A stretch of 17,566 nucleotides of DNA from Desulfobacteraceae bacterium (lineage in GTDB: Bacteria; Desulfobacterota; Desulfobacteria; Desulfobacterales; Desulfobacteraceae): contig PIVQ01000080.1 in the NCBI GenBank assembly GCA_003354055.1, forward strand, positions 1 through 17,566, in the 5' to 3' direction. Below, one piece after another: positions 1-12,140 of this stretch. The notes under the pieces are model-generated. The model was given only the letters and a program-made list of their open reading frames with translations, had not been told where the DNA came from and made no database searches. The position numbers were made by a program, and so were the translations under genes. The first letter of the stretch is position 1. The number at the start of each line of letters is the position of its first letter.

Positions 1-1068
1 TCGGATGCTGCAGAGGAATCCGGCCATGATAAGCCCGGCTATATCTTATGTGACTGGGTAGATGATTTCATGGATACCCCGGCAGGGCCTGTGCCAAAGG
101 TTAAAACAAAGCTGACTGTCAAGGACCGGATTGCAACTGCCCTTGTCCGGTGTGGTGTTCACCGGTACCAATATACGGTGGTGCCCGGATTATATGCAGT
201 TGGACAGCCGGATGCCGGATCAGAGGTAATAGTAACCGCCAATTTCAAATTGACCTTTGATATCGTAAGAACGGAACTTGGCAGTATTAATGCCTGGATC
301 CTGGTACTGGACACCAAGGGGATAAATGTGTGGTGTGCTGCGGGAAAAGGGACCTTCAGCACCAGGGAACTGGTCCATAGACTTCAGGATTCCGATCTTG
401 GCAAGGTGGTGGATCATAAACGGCTTATTGTTCCCCAGCTCGGTGCCACAGGGGTCTCAGCAAAAGAGGTAAAGGCCCAGTCCGGATTCAGGGTGATTTA
501 CGGGCCCATCCGGGCGTCGGACATTCCTAAATTTCTGGAGAACAAAAGAAAGGCAGATCCTGAGATGCGGGAAGTGACATTCACCATTTGGGAACGGTTT
601 ATCCTGACTCCGGTGGAAGTTCAGATTGTGCTTAAGCCTGCCCTGCTCATGGCGCTGGTGCTATTCATCCTCTCCGGCATCGGGCCCGGGATATTCTCCT
701 TTGGATCGGCATGGGTAAGAGGTTGGACAGGGCTTGGCGCCCTTACCGCAGGAATTGTTTCCGGGGCAATGGTCACGCCTGTGCTTTTACCGTTTATCCC
801 GGTAAAGGAGTTTGCACTTAAGGGAATCATCACGGGATGTGTGGCTGCGGTGGTATTCTTGATGGCCTTGCCCACGGCCACCGTTAGTACCGGACTGGCC
901 CTGTTTTTATTCATTGTCACCATCAGCTCGTTTCTGGCCATGAACTTCACCGGCACCACCCCGTTTACCTCACCTTCCGGGGTTGAAAAAGAGATGAAAC
1001 GATATATTCCGGTTCAGCTGGCCTGTTTGGTGCTCTCATCCGGGTTTTGGATTTACGGGGCATTTTAA
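1..1068 (+). CDS. hgcA: HgcA, corrinoid mercury methyltransferase (5' partial)
   Basis: HgcA is a membrane corrinoid protein that transfers a methyl group to Hg(II). The frame is open from base 1, and residues before the first ATG (position 70) already match the family N-terminus (GHDKPGY...TPAGPVP). The true start therefore lies upstream and only a short N-terminal piece is missing. The diagnostic cap-helix motif NVWCAAGK is complete; its cysteine, the presumed lower cobalt ligand, is at 334-336. The soluble corrinoid-binding domain ends near base 630. About five hydrophobic helices follow from ILTPVEVQIVLKPALLMAL to the C-terminus, the usual HgcA architecture. hgcB follows after 20 bases, the standard hgcAB arrangement. 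Recognition rests on the motif and the partner gene. No promoter is visible because the upstream region is outside the window. Confidence 0.96.
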   Translation, partial: SDAAEESGHDKPGYILCDWVDDFMDTPAGPVPKVKTKLTVKDRIATALVRCGVHRYQYTVVPGLYAVGQPDAGSEVIVTANFKLTFDIVRTELGSINAWILVLDTKGINVWCAAGKGTFSTRELVHRLQDSDLGKVVDHKRLIVPQLGATGVSAKEVKAQSGFRVIYGPIRASDIPKFLENKRKADPEMREVTFTIWERFILTPVEVQIVLKPALLMALVLFILSGIGPGIFSFGSAWVRGWTGLGALTAGIVSGAMVTPVLLPFIPVKEFALKGIITGCVAAVVFLMALPTATVSTGLALFLFIVTISSFLAMNFTGTTPFTSPSGVEKEMKRYIPVQLACLVLSSGFWIYGAF

Positions 1069-1088: not shown

Positions 1089-1379
1089 ATGAAAGAATTC
1101 AGACATTATGAGGACGTATCCACCCTGGTTCTGGATAAGGAACTTTGTGTCGGATGCACCCTTTGCACCCTGGTCTGCCCCCACCATGTATTTGAGATGG
1201 CGGACCGGAAGGCTGCGATTGTAGATTTCAATGCCTGCATGGAATGCGGGGCCTGCGTGAACAACTGCCCGTCAGGTGCCCTGAGTGTAAATCCGGGGGT
1301 AGGCTGAGCCGCTTATATTATCCAGGTCTGGATAAAAGGCGAAGAAAATGCTTCCTGCGGTGACGGCGGCTGCTGCTGA
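1089..1379 (+). CDS. hgcB: HgcB ferredoxin, predicted selenoprotein (Sec73 at TGA 1305-1307)
   Basis: HgcB is the 2x[4Fe-4S] partner of HgcA, thought to supply electrons to its corrinoid and to handle Hg. The ATG at 1089 has an AAGGA site at 1077-1081. Two cluster motifs are seen: C20-x2-C-x2-C-x3-C30 and C50-MECGACVNNC-60. The family motif NPGVG follows at 68-72. Codon 73 is TGA, not a cysteine codon. Reading through it, the frame stays open for 23 codons (AAYIIQVWIKG and on), ending in CGDGGCC before a TGA at 1377-1379. That gives 96 residues, the usual HgcB length, with the typical C-terminal vicinal cysteines (95, 96). Known HgcB has a conserved, functionally essential Cys at position 73 (Desulfovibrio ND132 numbering). 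A SECIS-like hairpin follows the TGA, so I infer selenocysteine insertion. A standard gene caller would stop at 1307 and lose the C-terminus. Confidence 0.9.
1308..1340 (+). promoter_or_regulatory. Bacterial SECIS-like hairpin after the hgcB TGA
   Basis: TTATCC (1318-1323) pairs with GGATAA (1330-1335) around a six-base loop AGGTCT (1324-1329). A weaker lower stem is possible (CTT 1312-1314 with AAG 1336-1338, or GCC 1308-1310 with GGC 1338-1340). The loop contains GGTC, and AGGTCT is the same apical sequence as I recall for the E. coli fdhF SECIS. There are 17 bases between the TGA and GGTC, against 18 in fdhF by my reading. Bacterial SECIS elements lie inside the coding region just after the UGA and bind SelB, as this one would. 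Confidence 0.85.
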
Positions 1380-1405
1380 TCAACCCTGCTTTTGATTTAA
1401 CCGAT

Positions 1406-1442
1406 GCAAACACCGGTCCGGAAATTCCGTGCCGGTGTTTGC
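1406..1442 (+). repeat. 11-bp perfect inverted repeat between hgcB and marR
   Basis: GCAAACACCGG (1406-1416) is an exact inverted match to CCGGTGTTTGC (1432-1442). The 15-base loop itself contains CGG/CCG. It begins 26 bases after the second hgcB stop and ends at the -35 of the marR promoter. No T-run follows, so it is not a canonical rho-independent terminator. It may end or stabilise the hgcAB transcript, or bind protein. Confidence 0.6.
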
Positions 1443-1471
1443 TTGACAAAACCGTTTAGCATGTATACACT
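1443..1471 (+). promoter_or_regulatory. marR promoter with internal operator
   Basis: A perfect -35 TTGACA (1443-1448) and a -10 TACACT (1466-1471) are separated by 17 bases. Between and over them lies GTTTAGCATGTATACAC (1454-1470). Read on the minus strand this is GTGTATA-N5-TAAAC, the same element found before the methyltransferase gene at 1956-1972. Placement inside the promoter suggests autorepression by the MarR protein. The predicted transcription start (about 1478) falls on the ATG at 1479, so the mRNA would be leaderless. Confidence 0.65.
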
Positions 1472-1478
1472 CAACACC

Positions 1479-1940
1479 ATGCCAAATGAAAAACTAAAAA
1501 TTCACGGGAAGTTCCAATCCATCATGGAACTGGCGCTGAAACTTACCAAAACCCCCAAAAGATTCGGAACAGACCATGATCTGTCCCACTCGGAGATCCA
1601 TCTCATTGAAATGATCGGAGATAACGAGGATCTGAGTGTGACAGATATTGCCGGACTCATCGGTGTGACAAAGGGAGCGGTCTCCCAGAGTCTGAAACGC
1701 CTTGAGAGGAAAGGGCTGACCGGCAAACAACCAGACCCTGAAAACCGATCCCGGTCCCTGGTTTTCCTGACAGCCAAGGGAAACATGGCATACTGGGCCC
1801 ATAAGCACTGGCATGAAACAATGGACGGCGGGTTCAGGCAATACCTTGAGGAACTGAACATTGAAGATACCCGCGTAATTGTAGAGTTTTTAACCCGGAC
1901 GGAGGATTTTCTGGCCCGCAGGATTGAATCAGACGAATAA
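1479..1940 (+). CDS. MarR-family transcriptional regulator
   Basis: This is a winged-helix repressor of 153 residues, a normal MarR length. The core reads LSVTDIAGLIGVTKGAVSQSLKRLERKGL, followed by a wing containing DPENRSRSLVFLTAKG. These are the recognition helix and beta-hairpin typical of MarR proteins. I chose ATG 1479 because the longer frame from 1404 would run through the -35 and -10 elements. No Shine-Dalgarno sequence precedes 1479, consistent with a leaderless message. The ligand is unknown. The shared operator upstream of this gene and of the next one suggests it controls itself and the methyltransferase. Whether it senses a metal, a thiol or a lipid-type compound cannot be read from the sequence. 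Confidence 0.88.
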   Translation: MPNEKLKIHGKFQSIMELALKLTKTPKRFGTDHDLSHSEIHLIEMIGDNEDLSVTDIAGLIGVTKGAVSQSLKRLERKGLTGKQPDPENRSRSLVFLTAKGNMAYWAHKHWHETMDGGFRQYLEELNIEDTRVIVEFLTRTEDFLARRIESDE

Positions 1941-1955
1941 AAAAATTTAACCCAA

Positions 1956-1972
1956 GTGTATACGAACTAAAC
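1956..1972 (+). promoter_or_regulatory. Second MarR-type operator, before the methyltransferase gene
   Basis: GTGTATACGAACTAAAC matches, on the opposite strand, the element inside the marR promoter (GTGTATA-N5-TAAAC in both). Including two more bases, it forms an imperfect palindrome, GTGTATA-N5-TAAACAC, with one mismatch. It lies 17 bases upstream of the methyltransferase ATG, just before the ribosome binding site. No convincing -35/-10 pair was found for this gene. Confidence 0.6.
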
Positions 1973-1989
1973 ACCTATAAGGAGGAATT

Positions 1990-2556
1990 ATGTACAATTC
2001 ATCATTTAAAGGCGATGTCTGCAGCCACAGCCATTCCATTTTTCTGGACAATTTCATTCGCAGGATATTCCAGAATCCCAAAAAGATCGTGGGACCCTAT
2101 ATCAATCCTGGCGACACCGTCATTGATCTGGGATGCGGCCCGGGCTATTTTTCCATTGATATGGCAAAGATGGTCGGCAGCCAGGGCCGGGTTTTTTCCG
2201 TTGATCTTCAGGAAGAGATGCTCTCCAAGGTGGCCCATAAATCCGTGCTGAAAAACCTGACCGATATCATTCACCCCCACCAGTGTACCCAGGACAGTAT
2301 CGGCCTTGCTCCGGAAGTTCAGGCAGATTTTATCCTTGCCTATTATATGGTTCATGAAACCCTGGATCACGGGGAATTTCTCTCCCAGGTAAAGGCACTG
2401 CTGAATCCGGGGGGCCGGTTTCTCATTGTGGAACCGCCCTTTCATGTGTCCAAAAAATTGTTTGAGCAGATAGCCAAGACAGCATTGGATACCGGATTCA
2501 TTTTAAAAGAAAGGCCTTCCGGTAAGGGAGGGAAAAGCGTTTTACTGGGTCTTTAA
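1990..2556 (+). CDS. Class I SAM-dependent methyltransferase, substrate unknown
   Basis: This is a 188-residue protein with a Rossmann SAM-binding fold. Motif I VIDLGCGPGYFS lies near residues 45-56, an acidic motif II sits in VFSVDLQEEM, and the post-I region ends in NPGGRFLIVEP. A strong AAGGAGG ribosome site precedes the ATG by a few bases. The N-terminus carries CSHSHSIFLDN, a Cys/His-containing stretch seen in some methyltransferases of this kind. It lacks the cysteine pattern of arsenite methyltransferase ArsM, so its place next to an ars operon should not be read as arsenic methylation. The operator shared with the marR gene suggests MarR control. The substrate may be a small molecule; nothing here identifies it. 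Confidence 0.85.
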   Translation: MYNSSFKGDVCSHSHSIFLDNFIRRIFQNPKKIVGPYINPGDTVIDLGCGPGYFSIDMAKMVGSQGRVFSVDLQEEMLSKVAHKSVLKNLTDIIHPHQCTQDSIGLAPEVQADFILAYYMVHETLDHGEFLSQVKALLNPGGRFLIVEPPFHVSKKLFEQIAKTALDTGFILKERPSGKGGKSVLLGL

Positions 2557-2639: not shown

Positions 2640-3014
2640 ATGGAAACACCACTGACCATATTAAAAGCATTATCGGACAGAAACCGGCTCAGAATCGTTG
2701 CCGCCCTGCTGGACGGTAAGGAGCTATGCGCCTGCCAGGTGACCGAAATGCTCCAGGTCACAGGTCCCACCGTATCCAGACACCTTGCCCAGCTGACCCG
2801 GACCGGACTTCTGAATTCAAGGAAAGAGGGCCGGTGGATCTTCTTTTTCATTCCCACAGGGAATCAGAGTCTCTTATTGCAATGGATAGAAGGGCAGCTC
2901 AAAGACACGGACCAGATAAGAACAGATGCCCTGGCCTTACAGGAGATCCTGTCCCAAGACCCGGAAGTCATTTGCCGGAAACAGCGGGGCGAAGCCTGCT
3001 GTCCTTCCAAATGA
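2640..3014 (+). CDS. arsR: ArsR-family arsenite-responsive repressor
   Basis: This is a winged-helix metalloregulator of 124 residues. The helix-turn-helix region reads TVSRHLAQLTRTGLLNSRKEGRWIFFFI. ELCACQ provides the Cys-x-Cys pair typical of As(III)-sensing ArsR proteins (ELCVC in E. coli). Extra cysteines near the C-terminus (ICRKQRG and EACC) could add thiolate ligands. It is the first gene of arsR-arsC-acr3. The ATG lies immediately after the inverted repeat with no clear ribosome site, so the mRNA may be leaderless or nearly so. By family knowledge it represses the operon until arsenite or antimonite binds. Confidence 0.93.
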   Translation: METPLTILKALSDRNRLRIVAALLDGKELCACQVTEMLQVTGPTVSRHLAQLTRTGLLNSRKEGRWIFFFIPTGNQSLLLQWIEGQLKDTDQIRTDALALQEILSQDPEVICRKQRGEACCPSK

Positions 3015-3032
3015 AACCAAGAGGAAAAACAA

Positions 3033-3473
3033 ATGCCCCATAAACTGAAACTCCTTTTTCTATGCACGGGGAATTCCTGCCGAAGCCAGATGGCGGAAGG
3101 ATTTGCCAACCATTTGAAGGGAGATGAACTTGAGGCCTATTCCGCAGGGATTGAAACCCACGGGTTGAATCCCCATGCCGTCGCGGTCATGGCAGAAGCC
3201 GGTGTTGATATTTCCGGCCAGACCTCCCAGCTTCTGGATGAATTTAAAACCGTTAAATTTGACTATGTGATCACGGTGTGCAGTCATGCCCATGAAACCT
3301 GCCCCTGGTTTCCGGGAGAGGCCGAGGTGATTCACGTCGGGTTTGACGACCCGCCACAACTTGCCAAAAATGTTTCAAGTCAAGAAGAAAAGCTGAACTG
3401 CTACCGCAGGGTCAGGGATGAGATTTCATCCTATATAACGACCCTGCCCCAGGCCATTATAAACTTAAGATAA
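3033..3473 (+). CDS. arsC: Arsenate reductase, LMW phosphatase/thioredoxin type
   Basis: It reduces arsenate to arsenite in the cytoplasm using a cysteine relay recycled by thioredoxin. The 146 residues begin with the P-loop [13 protein letters not shown] (C11, N14, C16, R17). The relay cysteines C83 and C90 lie in [14 protein letters not shown], matching the Cys10/82/89 scheme of the Staphylococcus enzyme. GFDDPP supplies the conserved acid region. A GAGGAAA ribosome site precedes the ATG, and the gap to arsR is 18 bases. The product, arsenite, is the substrate of the next gene. All catalytic residues are present. Confidence 0.95.
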
Positions 3474-3490
3474 CGACAGGAGGAAACCCC

Positions 3491-4687
3491 ATGGCTTCTG
3501 AACGATCAGCCGGTTCAGACCGGAAAATGACCAGCTTATTTGAACGCTACCTCACCCTCTGGGTGGGGCTTTGTATCCTTCTGGGCATCGGTCTTGGAAA
3601 AGTCGCCCCTGATCTTGCCCGAACCTTAGACCAGATGTCCCTGACTGTAAACGGCGCACCTGTGGTATCCATCCCCATTGCCGTCTGCCTTTTCTTCATG
3701 ATGTATCCCATCATGGTGAAAATTGATTTTGCAGCCGTGGTAAAGGCGGGTAAAAGCGGCAAACCGGTATTTTTAACCCTGTTGCTCAACTGGGGAATTA
3801 AGCCCTTTACCATGTACGCCATCTGCATTTTCTTTCTCGGCGGACTGCTTAAAGGGGTTATCGGGCCTGAAGCCATGGATATCGTCAAACTTCCGTTCGG
3901 TCTGGATCTGCCTCTGGGTGCGGTTCACGGTGCCGGCACCGTGGTGCTTCATGACGGAATTAAAATGCTTGAGGTTCCATTATGGCGGTCCTATCTGGCA
4001 GGCTGCATCCTGCTGGGGATTGCCCCGTGCACCGCCATGGTTCTGGTCTGGGGGTACCTGGCCAAGGGAAATGACGGCCTGACCCTGGTCATGGTGGCCA
4101 TCAACTCCCTGACCATGCTGCTGCTTTACGGAATCCTCGGCGGCTTCCTGCTTGGCGTTGGCCGCCTTCCCGTACCCTGGCAGGCCCTGCTGCTCTCCAT
4201 CGGGATCTATGTGGCCCTGCCCCTGGCAGCCGGTTTTCTCTCAAGAAAATGGATACTGGCAGTTAAGGGAGAGGAGTGGTTCAGAGAAAAATTTCTTCAT
4301 GTCCTGACACCGATAACCATTTTAGCCCTTCTCCTGACACTTGTACTGCTCTTCAGTTTCAAAGGAGAAACCATCCTGGCCAACCCGTTGACCATTTTAT
4401 GGATTGCCATCCCTCTGTTCATACAGACCCTGCTCATTTTCTGTCTGGGCTATGGGACTGCCCTGGGATTAAAACTCTCCTATGCAGATGCCGCACCTGT
4501 GGCCTTGATCGGGGCCTCCAACCACTTTGAAGTGGCCATTGCCACATCAGTAATGCTGTTCGGCCTCTCATCCGGAGCGGCTCTTGCCACAGTGGTCGGC
4601 GTGCTCATAGAGGTACCGGTCATGCTCATGCTGGTTAAAATATGCAAACGGACACAGCATTGGTTCAGGCCAGGGGAAGCCGAATAA
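3491..4687 (+). CDS. acr3: Arsenite efflux transporter, ACR3 family
   Basis: This is an inner-membrane arsenite exporter of 398 residues with about ten hydrophobic helices. The family signatures are present: [11 protein letters not shown] in an early helix, the essential cysteine in IAPCTAMV (C180), and [11 protein letters not shown] with its conserved Glu (E347). AGGAGG sits seven bases before the ATG, and the gap to arsC is 17 bases. The segment between the helix near 105-120 and the one near 168-188 looks longer than in the ACR3 proteins I know. It contains [19 protein letters not shown] and HDG, perhaps an extended periplasmic or re-entrant loop. The 3' end overlaps the convergent kinase gene by 23 bases, with no terminator between them. 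Confidence 0.94.
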
Positions 4688-7145
4688 TGAATTCAGTGCC
4701 CTGATCCGGCTCAGATGTCACATCCATTTGCCCGCCGTGGTCTTCGGTAATGATGAAATAGGAGATTGACAGCCCAAGTCCCGTGCCCTTATTCACCCCC
4801 TTGGTCGTAAAAAAGGGTTCAAAAATACGTTTACGGACCGAATCATCCATGCCGGGTCCGTTATCCCTGATTGTCAGACAGGCCATATTCATATCTTGGA
4901 ATGTTCTGACGGAGATGGCGGATTCAGAAGTGGCGGTGCCTGTACTGCCCATGGCCTGGGCGGCATTTTTAAACAGGTTTAACAGGACCTGGCGAATTTT
5001 TGTCTCTTCACACCTGACAAGTCCAAGATCCAAATCATAGTCTTTTGTGATCCGGATCTCTTTAAAATCATATTGTTTTTTCAACTGAAAATCATTTTCC
5101 GCCAGTGCCAGGGTTTTATCCACGATGATATCCAGTTGCCATGCCCCTTTTTTATTGGGAGACTTTCTGGAAAAACTGAGCATATTGTCCACAATATCCG
5201 CAGCATTCTGACCCGCAACCACGATATGATCCAAATACTTATAGATGCCCCGGTTACGGGCATATCCGTTGATCTTTTCCAGCCGGATGCCGGTCTCCCC
5301 TGCAGCCTCTTCATTGGCAGGGATGCCAGGTGACAGACGACTTTTGATCAACTGGGCATTGAGCATCATTCCGGCCAGAGGGTTGTTTATCTCATGGGCC
5401 ATCCCTGCAGCCAGTCCACCCACAGAGAGCATTTTTTCAGACTGAAACAGCAGCTCACGGGTCCGGGTCTGTTCTGTCATATCCCTGACAAAGGTCAGTA
5501 TGGCCGGTTTTTTTTCCCATTCAATAACAGAGGCATTCACTTCAAGATGATAAATCCTTTCTCCACCATTTACCCCCCTGATTGCAAAATGTCCCGGTAC
5601 CTTTTCATCAGGGACATTTTTCCCGTATCGTTTCAATATTTTCCCGTGATCATCCGGATGAATAAAGGTTAAAAAGGAAATGCGGCCAAAATCTGATTTA
5701 TCCAGGCCGGACCGGTCGAGAAACATGGGATTGGCATATAAAATTATACCCTTTCTCACAATACAGATGCCGTCTGCTGAATCTTCAATCAACTCTCGAT
5801 ACTGAGACTCGGACTCCTTTAACGCAGCCTGGACCCGGATCCGGCTTTTCAGTTCTTTTTGATAGGCCATATTGGTTTTGGCCAGTTCCTGCCACTGTTT
5901 TTCAATGGTGGAATATGCCCGGGAAAACCGCTGGTATAATAATAGGGCCTGAGAAAAGATAAAAACAAAAAAACCAAAGGGTAAAAGATGCCCCGTACTG
6001 ATTATCTGTCGGGTATAGAGAATATCATTGACAGCCGCTACCGCAAGAACAAGAAACCCACCTAAAAATATCAATGAGCCCTGACGGTTTTGGAACACAG
6101 CCTTAGCAGTTATCCAGGCACCATAGACCATCATGACCAGTGTCGTCAGCTGAAACACAGGCATTGAGTAGGTCAGCATGGGCAGAGGGCTTACCATTAC
6201 AAACAAGAGGAAAAAACCTGCTAAAATCAGATTGACTAAGACGGCTGATTTGGCCACCTCTTTGGGAAATAATGCCCGAACATAAAGTGCAAACAACGGC
6301 AGGATAAGAAACAGGGTGATATACACCATTAAAATCTCTACCCTGAAGCTTAACCCCGGTATCACCTGTGATAAGAATCGTTCTCCGGTGGTCATCATGC
6401 GAATGGCAATCAAAAAATTGAACAGGGAAAAATAAAGGGTAGACCGGTTACCCGTCCGTGTCAGAAAAAGCCCGAAATGATATATCCCCATAATCAAGAT
6501 ACTTCCCAGGAGGAAAAAATCCCAAAGGATATTTTTTTCCCTCAGCCATTGGACATCCGGGGTCAAACCAAGACGGACCGGTTCCCAGGCACCTCCCTGC
6601 CAATGATGAAAGTTGGATACATGGGCCACAATATCCAGCACACCTTTCCGGGGGCCAAGGTCTGTAACCTGGGGACGATAAAGGGGGAGGCTTTCTTCAC
6701 GGGTCTTCCCGGGCGCACCGGATGCAACCTGCTTGATTCCGTTCACGTAAAGGGTATACGCCGTTGCCATATCCAGGAGTTTCAGCCCGAGACGATGGGC
6801 GTCGTCCGGAAGCAATACCCTGAGATGGTAGGTGGCATATCCTGAGCCTGATACTTTTCCGGTTTTTGTCTGGAATTCATTCCAGTGCCCCGGGACCTTA
6901 ATCATTCCCGAAGGTATGGGTGGGGTGGGGGCTGAAAACCGGGAAGGCGGTACCATTTGCTGCCAGTAAAAGGCCCATTGCCCGTTCAGATTCACGGTTC
7001 CGTCTTTGGGAAAATCCCATTGACGTAGATCCAAAACACCGTTAACGGAGATTGGAGATATTTTTTGCTGCCTGCACCCGGATGAGATAGAAAAAGTAAC
7101 CAATAGAATTAAGGTACAGGTCCCGTAGATCAAATTTCTCATCAT
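4665..7145 (-). CDS. 7TMR-DISM / PAS sensor histidine kinase
   Basis: This is an 826-residue membrane kinase. The N-terminal signal/anchor ends in FSISSGC, a poor lipobox. Residues about 35-195 form the periplasmic DISM-type jelly-roll ([27 protein letters not shown]), a fold linked to carbohydrate-like ligands. About seven helices cover 205-405. A coiled linker is at 410-445, a PAS domain at about 447-560 and HisKA with phospho-acceptor H584 in HEINNP. The ATPase part has N-box NLFKNAAQ (724-731), DNGPGM and GTGLGLS. No receiver is fused and no response regulator with output domain is adjacent, so it is an orphan kinase. MM at the start leaves 7145 or 7142 as alternative starts. The signal sensed cannot be inferred. 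Confidence 0.93.
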
Positions 7146-9477: not shown

Positions 9478-10395
9478 ATGATTATCAGCATTGCCAGCGG
9501 AAAAGGCGGAACCGGAAAAACCACCGTGGCCACAAACCTCAGTGCCAGCCTTGGGGCAGACCTGACGCTTCTGGACTGTGATGTAGAAGAACCCAATGCC
9601 CACCTCTTTTTGAATCCTGAATTAACGGAAAAAGATAATGTAAATGCCCCGGTACCGAAGGTAGATGAAACCCTTTGCACCTATTGCAAAAAATGCAGGA
9701 CCATCTGCCGGTTTGGCGCCATTGCCGTTATGGGTCAAAAAATTATTACCTTCCCGGAACTCTGCCATTCCTGCGGGGGATGCACGCTGGTCTGCCCTGA
9801 AAATGCCATCACGGAAACTGACAGGTTTATAGGTCAGGTGGAAACCGGCACATTATCCCAATTGGCCCAATTATCTAAACGCTCAGGGGCCGGGTTTGCC
9901 CGGGGGATTCTGGACATCGGCCAGGTCATGGCACCTCCGGTGATCAGACAGGTCAGGACCCATGAAAAACCGGATGGGCTGACAATCATAGATGCCCCTC
10001 CAGGTACCTCCTGTCCCGTAATTTCTGCCATGAAGGGGACGGACGTGGTGGTTCTGGTCACGGAACCCACTCCGTTCGGGCTTCATGACCTGGTCCTGGC
10101 GGTTGAAGCGGTAAAACTTTTGGGCATCCCCCATGGTCTTGTGATCAACAGGGCCGGGATAGGCAATGACGAGGTCAAAAATTACGCAGCCAGGGAAGGA
10201 CTGCCCATCCTAATGGAAATTCCATTTGATAGAAGAATCGCCATGGCCTATTCCAAAGGAGAGCTTCTGGTTCATGCCCTGCCGGAGTATAAGGAAAAGT
10301 TTCTATCCCTCTATCAGGATATCACAGCCCTGGCCGACCAAGAGACTCTGAAAAGAACCGTGACTGAGCCAATGATGCGGAGGGTTGCCCAATGA
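9478..10395 (+). CDS. MinD-family P-loop ATPase with inserted 2x[4Fe-4S] domain (first copy)
   Basis: This is a deviant-Walker ATPase of 305 residues. P-loop GKGGTGKTT lies at 8-16, LLDCDVEEPN near 31-40 and Walker B region IIDAPPGTSCPV near 168-179. A ferredoxin domain is inserted after the first strands. Cysteines at 67, 70, 73, 77 and 96, 99, 102, 106 form two C-x2-C-x2-C-x3-C cluster motifs. GGGGAG lies before the ATG. Tandem pairs of such ATPases next to NifX-like genes are a feature of the orange-protein (ORP) gene set of sulfate reducers, where they belong to a complex linked to cell division. In this context I infer an ATP-driven metal-cluster assembly or positioning role. It overlaps the second copy by four bases (ATGA), implying coupled translation. 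Confidence 0.9.
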   Translation: MIISIASGKGGTGKTTVATNLSASLGADLTLLDCDVEEPNAHLFLNPELTEKDNVNAPVPKVDETLCTYCKKCRTICRFGAIAVMGQKIITFPELCHSCGGCTLVCPENAITETDRFIGQVETGTLSQLAQLSKRSGAGFARGILDIGQVMAPPVIRQVRTHEKPDGLTIIDAPPGTSCPVISAMKGTDVVVLVTEPTPFGLHDLVLAVEAVKLLGIPHGLVINRAGIGNDEVKNYAAREGLPILMEIPFDRRIAMAYSKGELLVHALPEYKEKFLSLYQDITALADQETLKRTVTEPMMRRVAQ

Positions 10396-11291
10396 AAGAA
10401 CTGGTAATTTTAAGTGGTAAGGGCGGCACGGGGAAAACCAGCCTGACAGCGGCATTTGCGGGGCTATCCTCAAATATGATGCTCTGTGATGCAGATGTGG
10501 ACGCGGCTGACCTTCATCTGATCATGACCCCGGAGATCCTTGAAGCCCATGATTTTATCGGCGGTAATGAGGCTGTCATTGATCCGTACAGATGCTCAGG
10601 ATGCGGCCAGTGCATTGAGGTCTGCCGGTTCAATGCCGTGACAAAAGCCCAGTCAACAGACAGCTTTCTCGTCGATCCTATTGACTGTGAAGGGTGCGGA
10701 GTTTGCGTGGACCTCTGCCCTGAGCAGGCCATTGACTTCCCCAGGAAGACCTGCGGCCAGTGGTTTTTTTCCCATACCCGATTCGGGGATATGGTCCATG
10801 CCCGCCTGGGTATTGCAGAAGAAAATTCGGGCCGCCTTGTGGCGCTTGTCCGTGAAGAGGCCAGAAAACGGGTCGCGGCAGATCATATAGATCTCCTGCT
10901 GACAGACGGTCCTCCGGGTATCGGCTGCCCAGTCATTGCCTCAATGGGCCAGGCCAATGCCATTCTCATTGTTGCTGAACCCACAGTATCCGGCATCCAC
11001 GATATGGAACGGGTCGCCACTCTTTCAGCCCACTTTAAAATCCCGGCCATGGTCTGCATCAATAAATATGATCTGAACCCGGACCAGGCCCGGGCCATTG
11101 AAGTTATTGCCAGGAACAAACAATTGGATTTAGTGGGTATGATTCCCTTTGACCCGGCATTTACCCAGGCCATGATCCAGGGAAAATCCATTGTGGAAAC
11201 CCATGGAGACTCACCTGCGGGAAAGGCAGTCAAGGATATATGGCAAAAGGTAATGGATAACGGGTCTATGAAAAAAGACCGACTTTGCTGA
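10392..11291 (+). CDS. MinD-family P-loop ATPase with inserted 2x[4Fe-4S] domain (second copy)
   Basis: This is a diverged paralogue of the preceding gene, 299 residues. P-loop SGKGGTGKTS lies near 8-17, DADVDAADLH at 33-42 and the Walker B region LLTDGPPGIGCPV follows the insertion. Cluster cysteines are at 68, 71, 74, 78 and 99, 102, 105, 109. An extra cysteine (TCGQWFF) follows the ferredoxin part. Its start ATG overlaps the stop of the first copy, so the two are probably made in equal amounts and may form a heterodimer. That pairing is inferred from gene order. The function is as for its partner: an ORP-type or NifX-type cluster ATPase. The exact client is unknown, but the two NifX-family genes just downstream are the obvious candidates. 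Confidence 0.9.
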   Translation: MKELVILSGKGGTGKTSLTAAFAGLSSNMMLCDADVDAADLHLIMTPEILEAHDFIGGNEAVIDPYRCSGCGQCIEVCRFNAVTKAQSTDSFLVDPIDCEGCGVCVDLCPEQAIDFPRKTCGQWFFSHTRFGDMVHARLGIAEENSGRLVALVREEARKRVAADHIDLLLTDGPPGIGCPVIASMGQANAILIVAEPTVSGIHDMERVATLSAHFKIPAMVCINKYDLNPDQARAIEVIARNKQLDLVGMIPFDPAFTQAMIQGKSIVETHGDSPAGKAVKDIWQKVMDNGSMKKDRLC

Positions 11292-11318
11292 ACAGATGAA
11301 ATAAAAATCATGTGAACA

Positions 11319-11337
11319 GCCGACGGATACAGTCGGC
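11319..11337 (+). repeat. Small intercistronic hairpin
   Basis: GCCGAC (11319-11324) and GTCGGC (11332-11337) form a six-base-pair stem with a seven-base loop, in the 84-base gap between the second ATPase and the first NifX-family gene. No T-run follows. It may mark an mRNA processing or stability site separating expression of the ATPases from the small proteins. Confidence 0.45.
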
Positions 11338-11375
11338 GGATATAAAACAAATACAACAAAACGGAGTATATAAAA

Positions 11376-11759
11376 ATGGAAAACGGTAGAATTGCCATTC
11401 CCTCCAACGGAGAAGGGGGACTTAGCGGCACCCGGTCCGGTCATTTCGGACATTGCGACGTATTTACCTTTGTGGATGTCAAAGACGGAAAAATTGAAAA
11501 TGTCTCCACTCTGGCCAACCAGGAACATGTCCAGGGCGGCTGCATGGTCCCGGTGAATTTGCTGGCTAAAAACCGGGTAAACGCCCTGATCGTGGGCGGT
11601 ATCGGAATGCGCCCCCTCATGGGCTTCCGGCAGGTGGGTATTGATGTATACCACGATGATCAGCGCCCGGAAATCGAACCGGTTGTCATGGATCTCATCC
11701 AGGGAAATCTTACCGAAATCCGCAATGACCAGGTCTGTGGAGGCGGTGGCGCCCATTAA
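11376..11759 (+). CDS. NifB/NifX-family (dinitrogenase FeMo-cofactor-type) protein
   Basis: This is a 127-residue soluble protein of the NifX/orange-protein superfamily, whose members bind Mo- or Fe-containing sulfide clusters. Family landmarks are an N-terminal RIAIPSNGEGGL, SGHFGHCDVFTFVDV, QGGCMVPVNLL, and ALIVGGIGMRPLMGF. The C-terminal GGGGAH tail with a single Cys (VCGGGG) may add a ligand. GGAG (11363-11366) is its ribosome site. It sits downstream of two ferredoxin-MinD ATPases behind a sigma-54 promoter. By analogy with the ORP system it could carry the metal cluster handled by those ATPases. No nif structural genes are visible, so a nitrogenase role is not implied. Confidence 0.85.
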   Translation: MENGRIAIPSNGEGGLSGTRSGHFGHCDVFTFVDVKDGKIENVSTLANQEHVQGGCMVPVNLLAKNRVNALIVGGIGMRPLMGFRQVGIDVYHDDQRPEIEPVVMDLIQGNLTEIRNDQVCGGGGAH

Positions 11760-11780
11760 TTTTTACACAGGATATGAAAA

Positions 11781-12140
11781 ATGAAAATCGCCGTAACATC
11801 AAAGGGAAAAGATCTGGATGCCCTTGTAGATCCCAGGTTTGGCAGGGCAGCCTACATCATTGTGGTGGACACAGACACCCTTGACTTTGATCTCATTGAT
11901 AATGAAGAGAATAAAAACGCCTTTAAAGGCGCCGGTATTCAAGCCGCAGCAGCCATCTGCGACAAAGGAGCCCGGGTTCTTCTCACGGGGTTCTGCGGGC
12001 CCAATGCATTTAAAGCCCTGTCTGCGGCAAATGTCCGGGTGGTCAATGATGCCGAAGGATCTGTCCGGGATGTAATCCGGAACTTTAAGGACGAAAAACT
12101 CAAGTTTGCCACAGAGGCCAATACCCAGGGACATTGGTAA
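11781..12140 (+). CDS. NifX/orange-protein-like cluster-binding protein
   Basis: This is a second member of the same superfamily, 119 residues and clearly diverged from its neighbour. It begins MKIAVTSKGKDLDALVDPRFGRAAYIIVVD, a start typical of orange-protein-like sequences (the PRFGRA segment). It continues with GAGIQAAAAICDKGARVLLTGFCGPNAFKAL. Cysteines are few (two), which fits a fold where the cluster is held largely by electrostatics. Whether this is ORP itself, with its Mo-Cu-sulfide cluster, cannot be decided by eye. The gap to the preceding gene is 21 bases with CAGGA as ribosome site. It is the last gene of the operon; the structured gap from 12162 follows. Confidence 0.84.
   Translation: MKIAVTSKGKDLDALVDPRFGRAAYIIVVDTDTLDFDLIDNEENKNAFKGAGIQAAAAICDKGARVLLTGFCGPNAFKALSAANVRVVNDAEGSVRDVIRNFKDEKLKFATEANTQGHW

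What the first reader, a model, noticed from the sequence alone, without database searches (positions are those of the whole stretch)
1305..1379. HgcB with selenocysteine in place of the essential Cys73
Seen: the hgcB frame has TGA as codon 73, right after NPGVG. It then stays open for 23 codons that match the expected HgcB ending (AAYIIQ..., then CGDGGCC). Known: HgcB has an invariant cysteine at this position (Cys73 in Desulfovibrio ND132 numbering, shown by mutation to matter for Hg methylation) and C-terminal vicinal cysteines. Inferred: the TGA codes for selenocysteine. Selenium binds mercury more tightly than sulfur, so this would put a selenolate at the proposed Hg-handling site of the mercury methylation pathway. 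I know of no described selenoprotein HgcB. Automatic annotation would truncate it and miss the C-terminus.
Basis: partly seen in the sequence, partly recalled or inferred. Interest (0 to 1): 0.96.

Follow-up and report, generated by a model that had tools for sequence, protein, structure and literature searches.

The report
Selenocysteine form of mercury-methylation HgcB
This bacterial gene for HgcB, one of the two proteins needed to turn mercury into methylmercury, has a UGA codon exactly where its relatives encode an essential cysteine, followed by a conserved stretch predicted to fold into an RNA hairpin, so the cell likely inserts selenocysteine there; such selenium forms of HgcB are already in print.

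Summary
Observation confirmed: hgcB (1089-1379, +) follows hgcA and has TGA as codon 73 (1305-1307), then 23 open codons ending in CC. Reading through lifts the NCBIfam HgcB score from 95.7 to 117.2 bits (cut-off 99). The same TGA occurs in 60 further loci, with a predicted 7-bp hairpin 10 bases behind it in 61 of 61. Its codons are almost frozen at synonymous sites (diversity 0.04, against 0.48 upstream and 0.60 in Cys-HgcB), and its core matches the E. coli fdhF SECIS. The nearest relative's genome has tRNA-Sec, selA, selB and selD; the window's own is not held. UGA is very likely selenocysteine. Not seen in print by me (their paper is not held): the extent (57 of 173 hgcB-bearing genomes in an order sample, 1 of 116 in a phylum sample), the frozen SECIS, one main clade without Cys members, and one Sec-HgcB outside it. 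That selenium handles mercury is inferred.

The parts
1..1068 (+). hgcA, 5' end cut by the window; mercury methylation corrinoid protein
   Evidence: NF040863 429.5 bits against cut-off 275; NVWCAAGK present
1089..1379 (+). hgcB, 96 codons plus stop when UGA 73 is read as Sec
   Evidence: NF040864 117.2 bits read through against 95.7 cut short, cut-off 99
1305..1307 (+). UGA codon 73, predicted selenocysteine at the Cys73 column
   Evidence: TGA at this column in 61 loci, window included; TGT 34 and TGC 22 in the 56 Cys genes of L022-L080
1308..1376 (+). C-terminal tail of 23 codons, AAYIIQVWIKGEENASCGDGGCC, ending in vicinal cysteines 95-96
   Evidence: amino acids conserved with free synonymous change at codons 83-90
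1310..1341 (+). predicted bacterial SECIS: lower helix 1310-1314/1337-1341, apical 7-bp stem 1318-1324/1329-1335, loop GGUC 1325-1328
   Evidence: fold -12.9 kcal/mol, 9 of 200 shuffles as low; apical stem 7 of 7 pairs in 61 of 61 loci, GGU loop in 58 of 61; CAGGTCTG shared with E. coli fdhF
1377..1379 (+). terminator of hgcB (also TGA)

Best explanation
hgcB in this window has UGA at the codon of the essential Cys73, and a predicted SECIS-like hairpin right behind it likely makes the ribosome insert selenocysteine there, giving a predicted 96-residue selenoprotein. Shown by sequence: the UGA, the open tail, and the conservation of both and of the hairpin-forming bases. Predicted: SelB with charged tRNA-Sec binds the hairpin and decodes UGA. 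Inferred: the selenolate at residue 73 takes the place of the Cys73 thiolate that is thought to receive methylmercury (or mercury) from the C-terminal Cys pair before release, binding it more tightly or exchanging it faster than sulfur would.
For: Read-through restores the full family profile. 61 of 61 loci with the TGA form the 7-bp apical stem. Synonymous diversity at codons 76-79 and 82 is 0.039 in 58 Sec loci against 0.597 in 86 Cys loci, and 0.476 at codons 8-72 of the same Sec genes. Codons 77/78/82 are ATT/ATC/ATA in 58 of 58 Sec genes; of 17 Cys genes with YII[QS]xWI, 3 have ATT at 77, 9 ATC at 78, 1 ATA at 82. The core CAGGTCTG is that of E. coli fdhF. In the genomes of L001-L021: tRNA-Sec over the cut-off in 18 of 21, selA 20, selD 19, selB 17; all four in 16, among them the nearest relative G001; each of the 19 genomes with selD holds a copy with an in-frame TGA. 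Mutation of Cys73 to Ala abolishes methylation and Cys73 is proposed to receive CH3Hg+ (PMC7305189, passages). A review lists HgcB motif GVGU as a selenoprotein.
Against: No protein-level evidence. The window's own genome is not held; 5 of 21 relatives lack one or more Sec components. Five of the seven stem pairs follow from the amino acids YIIQxWIK; only 15-30 and 18-27 (counted from the TGA) are free, so Cys genes often form 6 of 7 pairs, and L121 (Cys) forms 7. The GGU loop needs Val80, which most Cys genes lack, so its absence there is partly an amino-acid difference. Stem positions do not vary in the Sec set, so there is no covariation. Folds are uneven: window 9 of 200 shuffles as good, L001 0, L002 3, L015 7, L003 9, L009 22, L021 83. 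The Rfam search gave no SECIS match. A metagenome protein, P0003, has Leu at this column with a tail like the Sec clade's. G393 (L122, Sec-type) shows no tRNA-Sec. The mercury role of residue 73 comes from mutants and models of Cys-HgcB.
Confidence: 0.68

Rival explanations
1. UGA is decoded as selenocysteine, but the Sec serves another purpose than holding mercury: for example electron transfer from cluster B to the corrinoid, or redox control of the C-terminal cysteine pair.
For: HgcB is a dicluster ferredoxin; in the published model Cys73 lies about 13 A from cluster B and points away from the corrinoid of its own complex (PMC7305189, passages).
Against: In the same paper Cys73 is proposed as the CH3Hg+ acceptor. 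The review says that Sec in some other selenoproteins of this kind (SaoB, SaoC, UXX-star) may be metal-binding ligands; it does not say so of HgcB in the passages seen.
Confidence: 0.27
2. UGA 73 is a true stop and the gene makes a 72-residue HgcB; the conserved hairpin has another RNA role.
For: Gene prediction reports such proteins: 7 of the 120 homologs listed have 72 residues and end after GVG, one of them named '4Fe-4S binding protein'.
Against: Amino acids beyond the hairpin stay conserved while synonymous sites vary (codons 83-90, diversity 0.467); the truncation falls under the family cut-off; Cys73 is essential in ND132.
Confidence: 0.02
3. Sequencing error, or a decayed pseudogene with a nonsense mutation.
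For: Isolated TGA codons at other places may be of this sort: L168 has TGA at a cluster cysteine.
Against: The TGA recurs in 61 loci with conserved protein sequence on both sides.
Confidence: 0.01
4. UGA is read as Cys or Trp by a suppressor tRNA or an altered code rather than as Sec.
For: Cys is the residue in homologs.
Against: The SECIS-like hairpin and the Sec machinery would be unnecessary; UGA is also the terminator of hgcB and six other genes in the window.
Confidence: 0.02

Closest known systems
Selenoprotein HgcB (Haft & Gwadz 2023, J Bacteriol 205:e0025922; listed in PMC13188914 as NF040864, motif GVGU, WP_250697400.1)
   Same: Same protein family and same GVGU motif, hence the same residue
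   Different: Nothing found in kind. The original paper is not held, so how far it covers SECIS, clade and distribution is unknown to me.
Selenoprotein HgcA (same review: NF040863, motif CU)
   Same: Partner protein of the same pathway, also with Sec in some lineages
   Different: I take the listed CU to be the N-terminal C-UGA-P that I see in 7 of 141 HgcA reads, all 7 beside Cys-HgcB; 0 of the 53 Sec-HgcB loci whose HgcA was read show it (the window's HgcA start is cut off)
E. coli fdhF SECIS
   Same: Shared CAGGTCTG core at nearly the same distance from UGA
   Different: Distance one base shorter by my count; the rest of the stem differs
Cys-HgcB of Desulfovibrio ND132 (Cys73, Cys94, Cys95; from PMC7305189)
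   Same: Two 4Fe-4S motifs, residue 73, vicinal Cys tail
   Different: Cys in place of Sec; its DNA was not looked at here

Membership tests
HgcB, mercury methylation ferredoxin (NF040864) | Score over the curated cut-off | tested here: met
   117.2 against 99 bits with UGA read through; 95.7 cut short
HgcB, mercury methylation ferredoxin (NF040864) | Directly downstream of hgcA | tested here: met
   hgcA ends 1068, hgcB starts 1089
HgcB, mercury methylation ferredoxin (NF040864) | Two CxxCxxCxxxCP motifs, residue 73 Cys or Sec, C-terminal cysteines | tested here: met
   C20/23/26/30P, C50/53/56/60P, U73, C95-C96
HgcB, mercury methylation ferredoxin (NF040864) | Needed for Hg methylation | not testable with these tools
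   no experiment
Bacterial selenoprotein gene | In-frame UGA aligned with Cys in homologs, conserved frame beyond | tested here: met
Bacterial selenoprotein gene | SECIS hairpin right after UGA with GGU-type apical loop | tested here: met
   predicted from sequence: 61 of 61 full stem, 58 of 61 GGU, frozen codons; no Rfam hit; not tested in a cell
Bacterial selenoprotein gene | selA, selB, selC, selD in the genome | tested here: inconclusive
   window genome not held; all four in 16 of 21 relatives incl. the nearest
Bacterial selenoprotein gene | Se in the protein | not testable with these tools
   needs 75Se labelling or mass spectrometry

The most novel reading that the evidence does not exclude
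Sec-HgcB is the fixed form of one large lineage of the window's order (Desulfobacterales by the record names): one ancient Cys-to-Sec change with a frozen SECIS and no return to Cys, plus a second spread of the Sec-and-SECIS tail into an unrelated HgcB (G177). About a third of hgcB-bearing genomes of the order would then make methylmercury through a selenoenzyme, so that their methylation depends on selenium supply, while gene prediction cuts off the essential end of the protein.
Probability: 0.5. Interest if true: 0.7.

Novelty: already known. Interest (0 to 1): 0.45.

Why it matters
Residue 73 of HgcB is essential for making methylmercury, and what it does is open. A natural exchange of S for Se at that one atom gives a spectroscopic handle (Se X-ray absorption, 77Se) on the mercury transfer step and suggests that methylation in these species may depend on selenium. 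It also warns that surveys which call hgcB by gene prediction can see a 72-residue stub lacking residue 73 and the cysteine tail.

Tried and rejected
Rfam on 1000-1500 gave only hits far below their gathering scores. Second TGA in L003 (CU in the tail): the stretch behind it folds no better than shuffles (z 0.22), not claimed as Sec. Genes of the window that end in TGA: 7 listed, extensions of 1-9 codons except 152 after ArsR, which is just the next gene in the same frame. TGA flags in the phylum sample: of 6 genomes, G001 is Sec, 4 are terminators after Cys73-HgcB, 1 (L165) lies in the tail; one TAG flag (G560) was not fetched. In the order survey G214 (terminator only), G125 (terminator), G203 (TGA at a cluster cysteine), G337 (frame broken), G326 and G159 (TAA, Cys73) were fetched and not counted as Sec; G253 (2 TAA, partial match) was not fetched. 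Rows dropped: L016, L029, L044, L048 without a readable hgcB; L093 and L113 as duplicates of L121 and L122; L061 was misread by my pattern and is Cys, so the 86 Cys rows lack it. HgcA was not read by my pattern in 8 of 149 loci, 5 of them Sec-HgcB loci. Trees are the quick kind, SH-aLRT only, no bootstrap. The structure and fold tools were not used: a Cys-for-Sec model would not bear on decoding.

Full report
WHAT IS THERE. The window opens inside hgcA (1-1068; NF040863 429.5 bits) and continues with hgcB at 1089-1379 on the same strand. Codon 73 of hgcB is TGA (1305-1307) after NPGVG. The frame then runs 23 codons, AAYIIQVWIKGEENASCGDGGCC, to a second TGA. Against NF040864 the protein scores 95.7 bits if it stops at codon 72 (cut-off 99) and 117.2 bits over the whole profile if read through.

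RECURRENCE. A scan of genome contigs with HgcA kept the best 80 of 533 related stretches, itself a capped list. Of the 21 nearest (L001-L021, 64-83% HgcA identity), 20 still hold hgcB and these 20 have TGA at this column with much the same tail; L016 ends too early. The 56 readable hgcB genes of L022-L080 have TGT (34) or TGC (22). A survey of 389 genomes drawn from the order of G001, the genome of L001, found HgcB in 173. I fetched the places flagged with an inner stop, apart from one partial match with 2 TAA, and read them: 37 places in 36 genomes (L122-L158; G272 has two), 3 more genomes (L166, L169, L170), and 18 of the G001-G021 set have TGA at column 73, together 57 of 173 genomes. Places flagged 'none' were read for L091-L120 only. 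In a sample of 395 genomes of the phylum, 116 have HgcB, 6 were flagged with TGA, and of these only G001 has it at column 73. So the trait is common in the order sample and rare in the phylum sample. Counting the window there are 61 Sec-type loci.

THE HAIRPIN. Behind the TGA the DNA reads GC....TAyATTATCCAGGTnTGGATAAArGG (three loci differ in the loop). In 58 loci the codons 76-79 and 82 (Y I I Q, I) are almost frozen (mean synonymous diversity 0.039), while codons 8-72 of the same genes vary (0.476) and the same positions vary in 86 Cys genes (0.597); beyond the hairpin, codons 83-90 vary again (0.467) with the amino acids mostly kept. A 7-bp stem UUAUCCA/UGGAUAA, starting 10 bases behind the TGA, forms in 61 of 61; GGU is in the loop in 58 of 61. 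How far do the amino acids alone force it? Given YIIQxWIK, five of the seven pairs follow; the free ones are third base of codon 77 with third base of codon 82, and third base of codon 78 with G of Trp. Of 17 Cys genes with YII[QS]xWI (10 with Gln, 7 with Ser at residue 79), 9 make 6 pairs and 1 (L121) makes 7; 3 use ATT at 77, 1 uses ATA at 82, 0 have the GGU loop, against 58, 58 and 55 of 58 in the Sec genes. The loop also needs Val80, so its absence in Cys genes is in part an amino-acid difference. The weight thus rests on the frozen codons. The folded window element has -12.9 kcal/mol with 9 of 200 shuffles as good; for the Sec-type relatives folded, the shuffles as good were 0 (L001), 3 (L002), 7 (L015), 9 (L003), 22 (L009) and 83 (L021) of 200, and the Cys gene L027 shows no such hairpin. 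I conclude that this is a bacterial SECIS; Rfam gave no SECIS match.

MACHINERY. No genome is held for the window. In the 21 genomes of L001-L021, tRNA-Sec over the cut-off of 47 bits (scores 73-78) is in 18 (5 of 14 control genomes pass that cut-off too), selA in 20, selD in 19, selB in 17, one of them a partial match; all four are in 16, among them G001, the nearest. The missing ones concern G003, G004, G006, G012 and G016; completeness is not given, and G016 has only 1.5 Mb. Each of the 19 genomes with selD has a selD copy with an in-frame TGA, itself a sign of working Sec insertion. Of 8 further genomes from the survey, 7 have tRNA-Sec; G393, which has a Sec-type hgcB, does not show it.

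HISTORY. On an HgcA tree of 141 rows (53 of the 58 Sec loci, 83 Cys), 52 Sec rows and L016 form one group (SH-aLRT 100) with no Cys row inside; one Sec row, L158 (genome G177), lies among Cys rows. The first, smaller tree needed one change. In L158 the residues before 73 are about as near to Cys as to Sec HgcB (best identity 0.71 against 0.68) while the 17 residues after it equal those of Sec HgcB (best 1.00 against 0.94; DNA 0.94 against 0.82), and its stem is complete. This fits transfer of the Sec tail or gene, an older origin with losses, or convergence; I cannot decide. Its HgcA-tree neighbour L121 has Cys but a 7-pair stem with one G-U and another loop, perhaps a relic, perhaps chance. 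HgcA has its own Sec form with N-terminal C-UGA-P: 7 of 141 HgcA reads, all 7 with Cys-HgcB, and 0 of the 53 Sec-HgcB loci whose HgcA was read (the window's HgcA start is cut off). The numbers are too small and too related to call this exclusion.

HOW IT LIKELY WORKS. Predicted: SelB with Sec-tRNA binds the hairpin and inserts Sec at codon 73. Known for the Cys form: C73A abolishes methylation, and in a published model the C-terminal Cys pair brings Hg(II) to the corrinoid and hands CH3Hg+ to Cys73 for release (PMC7305189, passages). Inferred: Sec73 takes that role with tighter or faster exchange. A role in electron transfer or tail redox is the main rival.

WHAT IS KNOWN. A 2026 review (PMC13188914; outline and found passages seen) lists 'Mercury methylation ferredoxin HgcB, NF040864, GVGU, WP_250697400.1' and HgcA with 'CU', crediting for HgcB its ref. 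[quoted passage not shown] The original is not held. Full-text searches for HgcB with selenocysteine and with 'UGA codon' gave that review alone, hgcA with selenoprotein gave 4 papers of which these two bear on it by title, and HgcB with selenium and Desulfobacula gave none. So the kind is already known. I saw no print of the clade extent, frozen SECIS or the outlier, but these may be in the paper that I could not read.

ANNOTATION. In the protein search 7 of the 120 listed (of 800) homologs have 72 residues; all 7 were aligned and end after GVG; one NCBI name is '4Fe-4S binding protein'. Their DNA was not looked at, but such stubs are what gene prediction gives for this gene form (one search lists the window's own frame as ending at 1307).

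Noticed in passing
L003, second TGA at 6345-6347: HgcB tail with a second in-frame TGA (C-U-D-S-G-C-C). The stretch behind it folds no better than shuffles, so a second Sec or a point change cannot be told apart.
   Followed up: partly
L165 (G649), minus strand: HgcB with Cys73 but an in-frame TGA in the tail (PPDUSDGCGDG...SSCC) where relatives have a Cys-rich tail; a stem forms behind it (-11.3 kcal/mol, no shuffle control). Candidate Sec at a new place, one genome only.
   Followed up: partly
P0003 (metagenome protein): HgcB like the Sec clade (YIIQVWIKGKENASC) with Leu at residue 73: a loss, a variant or a read error of TGA.
   Followed up: no
L168 (G203), minus strand: TGA in place of the second cysteine of the first 4Fe-4S motif of HgcB; Cys73 intact, frame ends in CC and TAG.
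   Followed up: no
L126 and L137 (G272): One genome holds two Sec-type hgcB copies on different contigs.
   Followed up: no
L022, L024, L051, L058, L075, L080, L102: HgcA with N-terminal C-UGA-P, all 7 beside Cys-HgcB.
   Followed up: partly
window 1404-2556: MarR-type regulator and a SAM methyltransferase (PF13847) follow hgcB; of L001-L080, relatives of both lie in L001, L007 and L020 (there about 3 kb after hgcB), of the regulator alone in L002, and a like start MYNKKFKGDVCSHSHS follows hgcB in L149. A possible partner, given that SAM is reported as the methyl donor of HgcAB (PMC11588087, title and abstract start).
   Followed up: partly
window 2640-4687: ArsR-type regulator, low-molecular-weight phosphatase (arsenate reductase-like, my reading) and an SBF-family (ACR3-like, my reading) transporter next to hgcAB.
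   Followed up: no
window 9478-12140: Two ferredoxin-bearing MRP/NifH-type ATPases followed by two small proteins that look NifX/NifB-like (from the translations, not searched).
   Followed up: no
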